Assembly (NCBI GenBank): GCA_015143295.1
Contig: CM026565.1
Span: 32,620,052 to 32,684,051 of the forward strand
Direction of reading: 5' to 3'
Source of the DNA: Tetracentron sinense
Taxonomy: Eukaryota > Streptophyta > Magnoliopsida > Trochodendrales > Trochodendraceae
Length of the DNA: 64,000 nt
In this document: piece by piece, positions 11,688 to 36,543 of the stretch
How the letters are laid out: each line of letters opens with the position of its first letter
How positions within the stretch are numbered: the stretch's first letter is position 1
The notes under the pieces: generated by a model
The model's database searches: none
What the model was told of the DNA's origin: nothing
What the model saw: only the letters and a program-made list of their open reading frames with translations
Position numbers and translations under genes: made by a program

Positions 11688-13019
11688 TCATGGTAGATTT
11701 ATTTTGGAGGAATTATCGATGGTTTTCTCCATTTCTTCCTCTAACAAAATCTCCTGAGAGCGGCAACTGCAACTGCAAAATGCTTTCTCACCTCTGCAAG
11801 AAAATAAAGTAAATAAGAGAGTCTCAAAATTAGAATCCATCACCTTATACCCATTTAACCTAAGCAAAAATGCAAGCCTCTAGTCAAGTGTTTGGGCTGC
11901 AGAAAGCAACATTTAGGCGAACCTGTACATGTAGATGTCTTTCCCCTCTTCCAATTTCTTCTTGCAAGAGTAACAGAAGCTCAAAAAATCACATGGAGGG
12001 TATGGAGTGGAACTGTCCGAGGAATTAAGCACCCAAGACAACTTGTTCTGCTGTTCTTCCTTCTTACTACAATTGTCCAACTCATTTATGTGACATTCCA
12101 AAATGCAGTCACCGTAAATGTGAGTTGTTCTACGGTCTGGACCATGAGATATTACACAGGTATAATCTTCAGAGAGCTCTATCTCAGTTGGAGAGAGAGG
12201 CCCCATAAACCCATGGCCAGAGCCAGTGGATATCGGGAGCGAACTCGGATTCATACCCAAAGAATTGTCTAAAATCCGGCCTCCGCCAATTGATGGGAGT
12301 GAACACATTTGGGGGGTTCGCTTTTCCGATGAAAAATTTTCGGAACTTGAAATGGGGTTACAATTTACTAAGCCTGTTGAGGGTGACTCGAACCTGCTAC
12401 AATCCAACAAAAAGGATCTGATTTTTCCTAATGACTCAGGTTCTAATGGGGTTTCTCCAGTTCCAAACACAAAATCAGAGTGGCCTAGTTGGAGATGGGG
12501 AGATTGGATTTGGGTATTAGGCAAAATCACATGGTTTTTTGGCAGGGATTTGGGTGGCACAAAAGAATCAATTGATCTGTAAAGATGGCTTAGGGGATTA
12601 GGGATGTTAATCCTCATTTGAGATCCCAATAGTATATTTCTACTCTCGGATGATAAGACAACTGTCCCGGATGGTTTGGTTTCATCATCCAGAGAATCTA
12701 CGATGCCGAGGCCTACTTTACTGCAATTCCAGATCTTATGAGGACCACCATCTTGGCATGATCTTGGAGATCCAAGAGGGTTGCCTAAATTTGAAAACCC
12801 CCTAAAATCAAGAGGAGAAGTAGGGCTCTTAGCTGAGTCAGAATCTGATAAACCCTTGGTACTAAGACCTACAAACAAACCAGGGATAGTGAAAAAGGAG
12901 TTGCTTTTATGTTTCTGCCCCAAAACATAAGATTGGAAACAGGACTCTGAACCAGAATCAGGCATTAGATGATCCTTGTATTGATCTTTCTGCTGTGATC
13001 TGCTCCTCTTCCTCAGCAT
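11688..13019 (-). CDS. FCS-like zinc finger (FLZ, DUF581) protein, SnRK1-interacting adaptor
   Basis: Exons 13019-11923 and 11793-11688 join in frame (donor at 11922, acceptor TTGCAG) to encode 400 residues. The C-terminal FLZ domain is split by the intron: FLSFCYSCKKKLEEGKDIYM in exon 1 and RGEKAFCSCSCRSQEI across the junction and in exon 2. This gives the C-x2-C and FCS-type second cysteine pair expected of a zinc finger. The long Ser/Pro-rich N-terminal part starts MLRKRSRSQQKDQ and contains SPTSPLDFRGFSNLGNP, a conserved block of the FLZ8/FLZ10 type. FLZ proteins bind the SnRK1 kinase subunits and act as scaffolds or negative regulators in energy and stress signalling. The exact FLZ number is not assigned. 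The start is the first ATG after the leader intron. Confidence 0.9.
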
Positions 13020-14000
13020 TATCTCAAGACCTCAACCCTCCTGCAAAGACCAGAAACTCTTTTCTGCATTAAAATCAAGGAACTTTATACACACACACAC
13101 ACACACACACACTTAGAAATAATTGTAGAAAAAGCAACAGAATTATAAACCAAGAGTATGACATTCATGAATCGTGAAAAGCATAGAAATGAGAAACATG
13201 ATCATAGATTTACAGGCTCAGATGAGAATCCTCTCATAAATTGAAAAAGAAAAGATGATATGGACCTTGCATGGATTGAAGAGTAAATGGAATATTGTCC
13301 AGTTATTATACATCCATATCCCAAAATACACAAAATGAGAAAACTCAACGGAGGCATTAAAAGAGCTCTGAATCCAAATGAGAAGTATTGAATCAAATAC
13401 ATAAAAGTTTCCTCAAATACAGATAAAATCTCTTTAAGGTCATGGAAACAATGCATGGAGATAAACACATACCCACTTGATTTTCCACACACAAATTCAA
13501 AAGTCCAGAGAAAAAAAATCAAGTAACAGATCAAGAAAAGCACCCAAAACGTGAAGATAAAAACAAAAATTTAATCAGATTCTTCATACCCAAATTAGAA
13601 AATCCAGATTAAAACAACCTTCAAAAACTGCATCAAAGGGTCTCTAGAATCAGTGAAACAGAGAATACCCAGATGAAAAAACCCCATAAATGTATCAAAA
13701 AAATCTCACAAAACTCTCAAACCATGCATGAGGAGGTTGAAATCAACGAAAAAACAAAAGCTTAACCTGATTTTCAGCCCAAATTCCAACTCCAACAACC
13801 CCAACTCTAAGAATGCATCATATGGGTAGCAAATTCGCTGAAATAAGGAATAGAACCAGAGAATCGTGCAAGAAATGGATAGCCCACCTGGTTTTTTCCT
13901 TCAATAAGGTTGAGGAAAAATGTATATTGACAAAGGCGTAAACTTGTTCCGTACTCCTCTCTCTCTCTCTCTCTCTCTCGCTACTGTTTTTTCTCTTTTT
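13020..14000 (-). promoter_or_regulatory. 5' leader and probable leader intron of the FLZ gene
   Basis: On the minus strand a donor CCAG/GTGGGC (intron begins 13887) and an acceptor CTTTGCAG (intron ends 13041) define a likely 847-bp intron in the 5' untranslated region. The upstream leader contains a (CT)n run at 13956-13979, and (AC)n lies at 13089-13112 inside the intron. CT-rich leaders are common in plant promoters. The transcription start is not known. Confidence 0.5.
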
Positions 14001-26503: not shown

Positions 26504-27715
26504 ATGGATGACACGGAGGATGATGCGAGGTATCCTCCAAATCCGTACCCTGTAAATCACCAGCAGAGCTATGGATCTTTGCATCGTCCGAAGCTTCCTG
26601 TCCGAAACGCTTCTTATCCTCAGCCGGTTGGTAATAAATATGGCGACGAGGGTGATGATGAAGACGAAGAGGAGGAAGAAGAAGTAGAAGAAGAAGAAGA
26701 AGAGGAGGAGGAAGAGGAGGAGGAGCAGGAGGAGGAGGAAGAAGAGGAGCAGGAGGAAGAAAATGGCGTCGAGCGGGTTGTTGAAACAGTAGAGGAAGAA
26801 GATGATGAAGAAGAGGATGATGAAGATAACAATAGAGATGATTATCATCGGAGGATTGAAGTTGAGGAGTCAGAGAGGCACCGAAAGAAACGAAAACTGA
26901 AGAATTTAGCTTTAGGTTATGAGTTTGCTCCTCGTGTAACAGTGCCATCTGTTACTGCTGCTGCTGCTCCAAAGCCGTCTTTCGGTGGCCGAAATTCCCC
27001 TGTTGATTGGACCGAACATGCTACTTTTGTTCTACTAGATGCCTGGGGCAATCGGTTTCTTCAGCTTGGAAGGAAGAGTCTTCGGTCTGAGGAATGGCAG
27101 GAAGTTGCCGAGAAGGTCTCACAGGCATCAAAAGCCGAAAGGACAGATACTCAATGCCGCAATCGTTTGGATACATTGAAGAAGAAATACAAAAGGGAGA
27201 AGATGAAGTTTGCGGAGACTGGTAGTACAACTAGCAAATGGGTTTATTTTAAGAAGATGGATATGTTAATGACGTCGTCACCACCACAAGCTGGCCTTTC
27301 TTGTGGATTGGATTCAGGTGAGTATGTTTTCATGAACCCTAGGGTTTATTTGAACCGCTCCAATGGATTGGACGAGATGAGGGATAGTCCGGGGAATTCG
27401 GAATCTTCAGAGGGTGATGACGATGATTCGGATGGACTTCCACCGAAGAGGACAAGGTTTAAAGGGGATACTGATGAAGGGTCTTCCTTTAGGCTGCTGG
27501 CAGACTCTATTCAGAAATTTGGTGAGATTTATGAGAAGATTGAGAACAGCAAAAGGCAGCAGATGCTAGAATTGGAGAAGATGAGGATGGAATTCCAGAG
27601 AGATTTGGAAGTGCAGAAGAGGCAAATTCTGGAAAGGGCACAGGCTGAGATTGCAAAAATACGGCAAGGTGATGATGAGGATATCGATATTTCTGCCGAC
27701 AATGTCAGTGAGTGA
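26504..27715 (+). CDS. Trihelix (SIP1/ASIL/ENAP-type) transcription factor
   Basis: A single open frame of 403 residues. The N-terminus MDDTEDDARYPPNPYPVNHQ is followed by a very long acidic tract (about residues 47-110, mostly Glu/Asp encoded by GAA/GAG/GAT). A basic patch RHRKKRKLK then precedes the trihelix Myb/SANT-like domain at about residues 166-256 (DWTEHATFVLLDAWG, LGRKSLRSEEW, CRNRLDTLKKKYKREK, WVYFKKMDML) with the tryptophans expected of the family. The C-terminal helix (about 336-386, FGEIYEKIENSKRQQMLELE) is a predicted coiled coil. Members bind GT-type DNA elements and act as repressors or histone-acetylation partners in seed and ethylene responses. I do not assign a specific symbol. 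The last codons overlap a strong splice donor (TCA/GTGAGT at 27707/27708). Confidence 0.88.
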   Translation: MDDTEDDARYPPNPYPVNHQQSYGSLHRPKLPVRNASYPQPVGNKYGDEGDDEDEEEEEEVEEEEEEEEEEEEEQEEEEEEEQEEENGVERVVETVEEEDDEEEDDEDNNRDDYHRRIEVEESERHRKKRKLKNLALGYEFAPRVTVPSVTAAAAPKPSFGGRNSPVDWTEHATFVLLDAWGNRFLQLGRKSLRSEEWQEVAEKVSQASKAERTDTQCRNRLDTLKKKYKREKMKFAETGSTTSKWVYFKKMDMLMTSSPPQAGLSCGLDSGEYVFMNPRVYLNRSNGLDEMRDSPGNSESSEGDDDDSDGLPPKRTRFKGDTDEGSSFRLLADSIQKFGEIYEKIENSKRQQMLELEKMRMEFQRDLEVQKRQILERAQAEIAKIRQGDDEDIDISADNVSE

Positions 27716-32803: not shown

Positions 32804-35800
32804 TTAAATGTACTGAGCCAACCACTGCTTGCACATATCAAGCACAGGGAGTGCGTTCGCATGTAATGCCTGCCAAAACATAGGGAAAGGAATAATTTAA
32901 AGATTTCTAACTCCACAAACCAAAAACTTAATTGTTAAATGAAAAGGGCCATCAAAACAATAAATTTTTTGGCTAGAACTTTCAAAGTAAGCGGTATGAT
33001 ACCATAAATTGTTCAAGTCTATCCATTTTTTTTAAAATATTGCATTTTAACTTAAAACAGTAGTCACAGAACCATATACATTTCTGTGAGAAGCACAATA
33101 ATACTATTAGACAGCTAATGAATGATGATAACACAGTGTAACCAACCTGGTGTAGACTACAGATGGTAAAGTTGTCGAGGAAGATCACAACAAGCAAGCT
33201 TAAGGGAGACTTTGAGAGTTCAAATTACGGACTATTTCATAACAATTTAACTTGCAGAAGATGTGTATTTCTTCCATTATATTGTCTTCAGAACTCAGGT
33301 GATTGATGGATGAAAAAGAAGGCATTATTGATGCATTTCTAGTATTAGTGCCTTCTAACATTTTTCTAGCCGTGTGATTTAAATCAATTCAGGTTCAAAC
33401 AGTCCTCTTGCTAGTGAAAACTTCAAATTAGGGCTCATCGAATCCATGTGAAGTTATCTCCTTGCTTAATAAATACCATACTTCACTTTGTAATCTGTTT
33501 CTTATATCAATAAAATGTTTCTAGTTAATACTTGCCAGCATAGTTAGTTGAATTCTATTTTTCATGAACAGTTGTTACAAGTTCTAGATACCTCATTTAA
33601 GTAAACAAACAAGAATAATAAATTTAAAAATTAGTTATTTATTTTAATATGAGACTCATATTTCAAAGTAGAGGGGTGTCAACATTCTATAACATTAAGT
33701 TCAATTCCATCGATTGCATGGACTCCTGAAAAACATTGGAGCGCATGGACACGATATGCTCTACCTGAACTATAGTCCTTGTGCTTGTGATAGATATTTT
33801 ACATGTAGACAATAACTTGTCAAAATGAATATTCCATGTTCCCACATTATAGCTCTCTAATCTGGTTCCTGCCGGGAATAAATATTTGCTTTGAAGTAAT
33901 ATTACATCTATAGTCATCGATGTGATGGGTATCATTTGTTTCTCTTTGTGATGATAACTGGTCTACTTAACTCAGTGGTTAGGATCAATGTTTTAAAACG
34001 TGAAGGCGTGAGGTGAGGCGTTAGGACCTCAAGATGCGTGAGACGTAAGCCTCATAAGAAAGTTTCATGCTCTCATTTTAACAAAAAAATAAAATATAAG
34101 AAAAATATTACAAAAATTCAAAAAGTTAATGACATTGAAGGACAGTACTGACTCCAAAATTTTGCAATGTCTACTAGGGAAAGTGTGAATTAGATTCAAA
34201 TGGTTTTAAAATCCTAATACATTAAACATAATAAATTAAGTGTTAATTATAACCAATATAACCATCATTATTTTTCAATGCCTTATTGGAAAATAATTAG
34301 TGTTATTTTTTACTAGTTGAAACAAATTTAAAAAAAACGACATTTAAGTCTCAGTTGTAGCTAGACACTTAATTTTAGTTAATGCATGAGATGTTTACTA
34401 TAGGCAAAAAGCGAGCTTCAAGGCGTTAGGCGTATGCTTCTTGGGGTTTAAGCCTCTTGATTGAGCCTCGAGGCGTAAGCCTCACACTCTTTTTAAAACA
34501 CTAGTTAGGATATGGCCTTTCATACGGCAATAGTCACTGGTTCAAATCCAATAGTAGTAGAACATATTAGATACTGGAGTCAATGGTATCTAATAAGTTT
34601 ATTGAGCTACCTTTTATTTATTGATCCTTTCCATCCCCCCACAACTCTTATTGTATTTTATTTTGATTTTTTTTCGTTGCATCAGAATCTGATTACACTT
34701 GTTTGTAATCAATCAGTTGGATCAAACTAGTGTATAAACAGAACTTTTGATTACTCAAATGCGCCCACTTAAAGATGAATTAGAGCTGTAAGAAAGTTGG
34801 CAAGACTTCTTTTGTTCTCCGAATACCATGTGTCTAGTATGGATCTCAAAGGTCTGTCCTATTAATGATTGAACAAATGAGACTTTGAGGCATCTAGACT
34901 GTAACATGCCTTTCTGAATCCAACAAGACAAGCAGTTGAGGGTTTTTTCAATAAATTGTTGGAAGTACAGACCAGGAACTGTCCAGGGAGGTGGAAATGA
35001 CTCAGGATATTAATGCAATAAACAATGTAACTTCACGTTATTCTCTATCAGAAAACATAGCCCATTAGAGGAAGCACCAGAAACACATTTGAGATTTGAT
35101 TGAAATCCCTCCTGAAGGGAAATGCTAGACAGTTGTGCTTAGAATAGCAGAAAAACACACTTAGAGCTATTTGTGGTTTCAACTTTCAAGAACACCAAGT
35201 ACTTCTATCTCAAATAAAAGATATGCACTTCCAAATGATTCATAGGAGAGTAAAAAGAATAAAAGAGATTTGAAATAAGAGTAGAAACGTCACTAAAAAC
35301 ATTTTGCCTTACCATACTACGTCTCTGATCTCTCAGAGGTAAGGAACACCATCTTCCCTAAGGGGTTGCACTACATGTGTTCCTTCCAAAGGCAAAGTAC
35401 TCTAGAAGATATTGGAGAGTATAGATTCCTATTGTAAGAATCAAAGGTAAGGAACACCAACTTATTTAAGGGGCCCGAAGAGGTTGCGCCATAGTATTAA
35501 AACTCGGCGAGTCGACTCAACTTGGCCAGGTTTTGAGTCGAGTTTGAGGTAAAACTCAGTTTTAACATTGAAAACTGAATAACTCGACCCGACTCGCCCA
35601 AGTTTTGTACTTTTTTTGTTAAAACAAAAAATTGAGTAAACTGGCCTACCCGAGTGACCAAATTATGTTTTTTTTTTTTAACACATCCCACCCACTTTTA
35701 AGTATAAATACGTAACAAAAAGGGTGTTTAGTATATATTGAAATTATATGTCATTTTAGGCATGATTTATGATTGATTTTGAATTTATACCATATCAGAA

Positions 35801-36543
35801 AATTATTATATATGTCCGAGTTTTAGGTGTCATTACTTGGACGAGTTTTGCCCAAGTTTCCGAGTTGACTCTACTCGGCAAGTTTCCGAGTCGAGTCAAG
35901 TTTTCAGGTTTTAAAACACTGGGTTGCGCTACATGTTTTCCTTCCAAAGGCAAAGTACTCTAGAATATATTGAGAGTATAGATTCCTATTGTAAGAATCT
36001 TAGTTGAGAGTGAGAGGAAACCTGATGAGCTACATATTGAACATCCGCCACACTTCCACTTCGAGAAGCAATCTGGAAGGCACTCTTTAGACGACCACAA
36101 ACCACACAGGCCAGCACCTTCCTGCACCGATCAGTCTAGATCATGAAAATTGATCGAAGATCATATGGTATCTTATGAAAATTGAACAACATATACAACA
36201 AGGAAACATCACCAATATTATATTTTGATGTATGAGTAATGCTTTTTTTTTTAATTATCGGTAAACAGTAAAATACTGTTTATACTATGAGTCATGCTGT
36301 CAAAAGTATAATCCTATATATCAACTGTAAATTTTTGAAATGAAAACAAATGTCAGATATATAACAAAACTTGCACCTTTAGAACTACAAGTACACATCA
36401 AATATTTTCTTCAAAACTATAAGTACACATCAAATATTTTCTTCAAAACTATAAGTACACATCAAATATTTTCTTCAAAATATCTTATAACCATAGCAGC
36501 ATTTCTCAATCCTTCTTTGCTAGGGTAAATCCTGCCAAATTCC

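What the first reader, a model, noticed from the sequence alone, without database searches (positions are those of the whole stretch)
33961..34560. Plastid-type trnM(CAU) in nuclear DNA, split by a MITE
Both halves of an elongator trnM are almost identical to the plastid gene, including the CAT anticodon and the T-arm. They are separated by a 518-bp hAT-type element flanked by GTTAGGAT, which is itself D-arm sequence. This gives a clear order: organelle DNA transfer first, MITE insertion second. The low divergence of the tRNA suggests a fairly recent transfer. Plastid origin follows from recalled tRNA sequence; mitochondrial DNA carrying the plastid gene is an equal alternative.
Basis: partly seen in the sequence, partly recalled or inferred. 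Interest (0 to 1): 0.75.

Follow-up and report, generated by a model that had tools for sequence, protein, structure and literature searches.

The report
Old chloroplast fragment split by transposon
A roughly 550-base piece of chloroplast DNA, including a methionine tRNA gene, moved long ago into this plant's nuclear chromosome and was later cut in two by a small jumping element, which is an ordinary kind of plant genome scar.

Summary
Removing 33986-34503 (518 bp) and one copy of the 8-bp duplication GTTAGGAT rejoins a plastid elongator trnM(CAU). The match goes beyond the tRNA: about 550 bp, from 33693 to about 34760-34780, follows the plastid order trnV - trnM - hairpin - (toward atpE), as in two real plastid contigs (L009, L010) and in other plastid insertions of the same genome. 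The insert belongs to a high-copy MITE family (1640 matches to its first 28 bases, 0 in the control) with 8-bp target-site duplications, as in hAT elements. Of 13 nuclear relatives aligned, 8 cover both sides of the site and all 8 lack the insert. The transfer does not look recent: 73 of 548 sites (13.3%) differ from the majority of those relatives, and the tRNA (10 of 70) is no better conserved than the flanks. The mitochondrion is not an equal alternative: the putative mitochondrial contigs match the tRNA only. The order of events is supported by nesting and by divergence (fragment 13.3%, MITE 4.1% from its family majority). A new example of a described process; interest low.

The parts
33693..33961 (+). 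5' part of the nuclear plastid fragment: plastid trnV-UAC 3' region and trnV-trnM spacer
   Evidence: Collinear with plastid contigs L009 and L010 and with nuclear plastid copies on C11, C21, C13 (82-84% over 301 aligned columns each, all three starting at 33693). The trnV name is recalled from plastid gene order; ARAGORN did not report it.
33962..33985 (+). 5' part of trnM(CAU) pseudogene (acceptor strand and D-arm), ending in the target site GTTAGGAT 33978-33985
   Evidence: 20-base exact run CTACTTAACTCAGTGGTTAG to plastid trnM.
33986..34503 (+). 518-bp hAT-type MITE, ends CAATGTTTTAAAAC ... TTTTTAAAACACTA, shorter than the 592-bp family majority sequence
   Evidence: High-copy family; ends and 8-bp duplications compared in 38 other copies.
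34504..34511 (+). second copy of the 8-bp target-site duplication GTTAGGAT
   Evidence: Identical to 33978-33985; the relatives without the insert have one copy of GTTAGAGT or a close variant here.
34512..34559 (+). 3' part of trnM(CAU) pseudogene with CAT anticodon, T-arm and damaged acceptor end
34560..34782 (+). 3' part of the plastid fragment: trnM downstream hairpin (arms 34561-34574 / 34586-34599) and trnM-atpE spacer; the end lies between 34759 and 34782 by different alignments to the C11 and C21 copies
   Evidence: Hairpin: and the same hairpin 3' of trnM in plastid contig L010. Extent: (the C13 copy stops matching earlier, near 34602).

Best explanation
This is an old, non-functional nuclear plastid DNA fragment (NUPT) of about 550 bp that carried trnM(CAU) and its neighbours into chromosome-scale contig C15. 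A non-autonomous hAT-type MITE later inserted into the D-arm of the decaying tRNA gene and duplicated its 8-bp target GTTAGGAT. Shown: plastid collinearity on both sides, MITE family membership, exact 8-bp duplication, relatives without the insert, and greater divergence of the fragment than of the MITE. Inferred: integration by double-strand-break repair (general knowledge), mobilisation by a hAT transposase made elsewhere in the genome, and lack of any present function.
For: Flank searches find the same fragment at other nuclear places: 41 matches on the 3' side (38 of 38 candidates scored) and 28 on the 5' side (27 of 27), the window itself included. With the insert removed the locus aligns across the site to the C11 and C21 copies at 81% over 584 and 576 columns. 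Two plastid contigs show the same order. MITE: 1640 genome matches to its first 28 bases with up to 3 mismatches, 0 in the reversed control; of 38 other copies examined 23 have a perfect 8-bp duplication and 7 one mismatch, against 0.07% and 1.4% by chance. Of 13 nuclear relatives aligned, 8 cover both sides of the site and all 8 lack the insert. Divergence 73/548 for the fragment against 21/517 for the MITE, Fisher p = 7e-8. C-to-T type changes hit 25 of 197 G/C sites and the reverse 17 of 351 A/T sites, p = 0.001, as expected of methylated nuclear DNA (general knowledge).
Against: The plastome of this species was not at hand: L009 and L010 are plastid contigs of other, unnamed plants inside bacterial MAGs, so divergence was measured against the majority of other nuclear copies, themselves 1 to 13% off that majority. 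No reads were available for the junctions. No hAT transposase was linked to the MITE family. The terminal repeats of this copy match at only 12 of 16 bases, and 8 of the 38 other copies have 2 or 3 mismatches in the duplication, which chance also gives.
Confidence: 0.96

Rival explanations
1. The plastid piece reached the nucleus through mitochondrial DNA that carried a plastid insert (MTPT), not directly from the plastid.
For: C359 and C1478, the contigs with the two best COX1 matches, carry a plastid-type trnM. At one of five sites that separate their trnM from both plastid tRNAs the window has their base. A plastid trnV-region fragment next to a broken COX1 match exists at C3:55.97 Mb and C955, so mixed organelle inserts occur here.
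Against: Those two contigs match the tRNA only: the 3' query hits them over its first 54 bases and the 5' query not at all, all candidates scored; the L010 query hits them over the tRNA only (40 of 92 candidates scored). At 3 of the 5 sites the window has the plastid base, at 1 neither.
Confidence: 0.06
2. The tRNA-like sequence is the head of a tRNA-derived SINE rather than organelle DNA.
For: Plant SINEs begin with tRNA-like A and B boxes (general knowledge); the piece has relatives of up to several hundred bases elsewhere.
Against: Homology extends about 270 bp upstream of the tRNA into plastid sequence and downstream into the plastid hairpin; the copies have different ends rather than a common start and tail.
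Confidence: 0.01
3. Assembly artefact: the MITE or the plastid piece was joined in wrongly.
For: No reads were available.
Against: Both junctions fall exactly at family-typical element ends with an intact 8-bp duplication; the plastid piece is 13% diverged, which stray plastid reads would not be; 31700-33690 hits only its own place.
Confidence: 0.01
4. A nuclear tRNA-Met gene still in use, interrupted by an intron-like insert.
For: Anticodon and T-arm are intact.
Against: Sequence is plastid type; ARAGORN and Rfam find no tRNA in the window, and ARAGORN none in the rejoined site; the tRNA part is not conserved above its flanks (10 of 70 against 63 of 479 changed, p = 0.85).
Confidence: 0.01

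Closest known systems
NUPTs (nuclear integrants of plastid DNA)
   Same: Short plastid segment in plastid gene order inside a nuclear chromosome, decayed, with an excess of C-to-T type changes; others in the same genome.
   Different: Nothing in kind; this one is the most decayed of the 14 copies compared, with one other nearly equal.
TE insertion as a cause of NUPT fragmentation (review PMC7037861, section 3.3, read)
   Same: A transposon lands in a plastid insert and splits it; that section says TE insertion plays a significant role in fragmentation.
   Different: Here the target is the D-arm of a tRNA pseudogene. The other 38 MITE copies showed no plastid surroundings when held against the 11 kb of plastid DNA in L009 and L010; a preference for tRNA genes was not tested.
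Plant hAT MITE families
   Same: 518-592 bp non-coding element, short terminal repeats, 8-bp duplications with T at position 2 (20 of 29) and A at position 7 (23 of 29) (that this is the hAT pattern is recalled), many copies.
   Different: No transposase identified and no family name found: the three terminal strings searched do not occur in the ten papers listed of 172 that hold any two of the five terms (listing only).

Membership tests
NUPT | Plastid sequence in plastid order, beyond a single gene | tested here: met
NUPT | Located in nuclear chromosome with unique nuclear flank | tested here: met
   Contig C15 of 40.1 Mb; 31700-33690 hits only itself
NUPT | Match to the species' own plastome | not testable with these tools
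   No plastome seen in the assembly: 24 partial Photo_RC matches, all on C1-C24, none covering more than 139 of 260 positions; no full-length match to L010
NUMT carrying plastid trnM | Mitochondrial sequence next to the tRNA | tested here: not met
   C359 and C1478 share only the tRNA with the window
hAT-type MITE | 8-bp target-site duplication | tested here: met
   8 of 8 bases here; of 38 other copies 23 perfect, 7 with one mismatch, 8 with two or three
hAT-type MITE | Short terminal inverted repeats | tested here: met
   CAATGTTTTAAAA against TAGTGTTTTAAAA; 12 of the first 16 bases match; 38 of 38 other copies have both ends with at most three errors each
hAT-type MITE | High copy, short, non-coding | tested here: met
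   no frame of 120 aa or more overlaps it
hAT-type MITE | Mobilised by a hAT transposase | not tested
   No autonomous partner sought

The most novel reading that the evidence does not exclude
The fragment left the plastid before the last changes in this lineage's plastome and so preserves an older plastid state: at 2 of 13 sites where both outside plastids agree against the other nuclear copies, the window has the outside state (the other 11 follow the nuclear copies), and the tree places it outside the other nuclear copies, though that order has only 34% support. Both sites could equally be C-to-T decay.
Probability: 0.2. Interest if true: 0.2.

Novelty: new member of a known kind. Interest (0 to 1): 0.12.

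Why it matters
It is a clean example of nested insertion in which both layers can be dated relative to each other: organelle DNA first, transposon later. It also warns against dating organelle transfers from a tRNA alone: tRNA changes so little between plastids that an old copy can look young, while the flanks and the comparison with other nuclear copies show that the transfer is old. Beyond that it is routine plant genome history.

Tried and rejected
Rejected: recent transfer; mitochondrial source as an equal option; SINE head; living tRNA gene. A preference of the MITE for plastid DNA: none of the 38 other copies fetched has surroundings that match L009, L010 or the window's fragment, apart from one 29-base match in L050 (E 2e-4), which I take as chance; this tests only the 11 kb of plastid DNA in those two contigs and the 100 to 1500 bases held beside each copy, and nuclear tRNA genes were not looked for. 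A homeologous copy of the locus: none found; 31700-33690 hits only itself and 34772-36800 hits itself and a separate high-copy repeat (40 of 1518 candidates scored, so a weaker homeologous match could be missed there).

Led nowhere: the plastid pattern in viral contigs (0 hits); paper search for trnM strings (0 papers); a paper search for a MITE inside a NUPT (8 papers hold 3 of 6 terms; titles and abstract starts only, none appears to be about this). In one search the tree part printed nothing; it was rerun. In one search the first way of finding MITE ends failed (1 of 38 perfect duplications) because most copies are longer near the 3' end than the window copy; one search anchored on the terminal repeats instead.

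Rows dropped: of the 39 other MITE copies scored, 38 were read (the C72 copy was not fetched). L058/L067 and L069/L070 are near-identical pairs, and each member was counted; for the 29 duplications (those with at most one mismatch) L067 was left out. Not every nuclear plastid match was aligned: 13 nuclear relatives, 2 plastid contigs and the window make the 16 rows. Four short rows (C3_47, C1_12.13, C955, C3_55.97) were left out of the tree (12 rows), where unalignable ends of five rows were masked; these ends were not masked and inflate the values of some relatives there.

Full report
What was checked. The window lies at 32620052-32684051 of contig C15 (40.1 Mb) in an unnamed assembly of 1.16 Gb in 1479 contigs, a plant nuclear genome by its content. 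The real plastid tRNAs fetched later confirm the match (62 of 70 sites for each of L009 and L010).

Plastid identity beyond the tRNA. A pattern search in genome contigs returned two contigs placed in bacterial MAGs that are plainly plastid DNA: tRNA-Phe and tRNA-Met in both and, in L010, reading frames that I recognise by recall as ndhJ, ndhK, ndhC and atpE in plastid order. In both, the sequence upstream of trnM matches the window's upstream flank, and L010 carries the same hairpin downstream of trnM that the window has at 34561-34599. Searches of the own genome with each flank found other copies: 3' side 41 matches, 38 of 38 candidates scored; 5' side 28 matches, 27 of 27 scored, the window itself included. 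The window's homology to three longer nuclear copies starts at 33693 in all three. It ends between 34759 and 34782 against C11 and C21, by two sets of alignments, and near 34602 against C13. So the plastid fragment is about 540-565 bp without the insert.

Source organelle. C359 and C1478 (907,582 and 856,059 bp) hold the two best COX1 matches, partial and without stop codons, and the 4,001-base stretches read from them have 47% GC and are identical over 3,980 bases; I take them as mitochondrial. They carry an ARAGORN-intact trnM(CAU) of plastid type, but the 3' flank query matches them only over its first 54 bases, which are tRNA, and the 5' query does not match them. Of five sites that separate their tRNA from both plastid tRNAs, the window has the plastid base at three, their base at one and neither at one. 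Direct plastid origin is therefore much the better reading; a detour through an older mitochondrial copy is not excluded. No plastome was seen in the assembly: 24 matches to the PsbA/PsbD family, the longest over 139 of 260 positions, all on C1-C24.

Age of the transfer. Three of the 13 other nuclear copies lie within 2% of the majority of the rest (C11 1.2%, C21 1.6%, C6_14.06 2.0%), the others at 4.2 to 13.1%, some of them inflated by unalignable ends; C13 agrees at 347 of 348 sites in the tRNA and 5' flank. I use the majority as a stand-in for the lineage's plastome. The window differs at 73 of 548 sites, 13.3%, the highest of the 14, with C13_15.28 at 13.1%. In a tree of 12 rows with masked ends its branch is 0.136; C13_15.28 has 0.124. 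The tRNA is no exception: 10 of 70 sites changed, against 37 of 267 and 26 of 212 in the flanks (p = 0.85). The low divergence that suggested a recent transfer reflects slow tRNA evolution in plastids: the outside plastids agree with the nuclear majority at 68 of 70 sites in the tRNA but only at 69-82% in the spacers. With nuclear rates of roughly 2.5 to 7 per billion sites and years (recalled), 13.6% would mean about 20-55 million years; this is only an order of magnitude.

The insert. It belongs to a large family: 782 forward and 858 reverse matches to its first 28 bases with up to three mismatches, none for the reversed control. In 38 other copies read (of 39 others scored, from 2815 candidates), both ends were found; 23 have a perfect 8-bp duplication, 7 have one mismatch and 8 have two or three, against 0.07%, 1.4%, 8% and 31% by chance for none, one, two and three. 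Position 2 of the duplication is T in 20 of 29 and position 7 A in 23 of 29, the pattern I recall for hAT elements; GTTAGGAT fits it. The window copy is 518 bp against a family majority sequence of 592 and differs from it at 21 of 517 sites; its end branch in the MITE tree is 0.028. Raw identities to the nearest copies, gaps included, are 88 to 92%. No transposase was linked to it.

Order of events. Of the 13 nuclear relatives aligned, 8 cover both sides of the site (C427 and C9 are near-identical to each other) and all 8 lack the insert. The MITE is nested in the fragment and is less diverged from its family majority than the fragment is from its own (4.1% against 13.3%, p = 7e-8). Both GTTAGGAT copies are still identical, including two changes from plastid GTTAGAGT that must therefore predate the insertion. 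Plastid transfer first, decay, then MITE, is well supported.

Function and novelty. ARAGORN and Rfam see no tRNA in the window and ARAGORN none in the rejoined site. The excess of C-to-T type changes (25 of 197 against 17 of 351, p = 0.001; 7 of 24 at CG sites) is typical of methylated, decaying plastid inserts (general knowledge). Splitting of plastid inserts by transposons is described in the literature: the review PMC7037861, section 3.3 (that section read; passages), and decay and fragmentation in PMC3989485 (passages); PMC12572781 (passages) reports overlap of plastid inserts with tRNA genes and species-specific closeness to transposons in a comparison of 30 species. This locus is a tidy new example of a known kind.

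Noticed in passing
window 35482-35929: A second hAT-type MITE, 432 bp (35490-35921), with a perfect 8-bp duplication GGTTGCGC and end TTTTAAAACACTG like the first family, but a different interior; high copy, 40 of 1518 candidates scored.
   Followed up: partly
window 35330-36000: A locally repeated stretch (parts such as CCTTCCAAAGGCAAAGTAC and ATAGATTCCTATTGTAAGAATC) appears twice around the second MITE (read by eye).
   Followed up: no
G000:C3:55967895-55968530 and C955:40106-40741: A plastid trnV-region fragment lies next to a broken COX1 match, a mixed organelle insertion present twice.
   Followed up: no
G000:C11:5645133-5648746: Six linked minus-strand matches to the trnM 3' region within 3.7 kb, probably a local multiplication of a plastid insert.
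   Followed up: no
L027, L028, L029 (C21:26.59, C13:34.79, C11:25.19 Mb): All three nuclear plastid copies given to ARAGORN keep a predicted tRNA-Met(CAU), unlike the window's.
   Followed up: partly
window 26504-27715 (+) and 11913-13031 (-): Nuclear gene frames near by: a Myb/SANT-like (trihelix-type) protein with a long acidic stretch, and an FLZ zinc-finger protein.
   Followed up: partly
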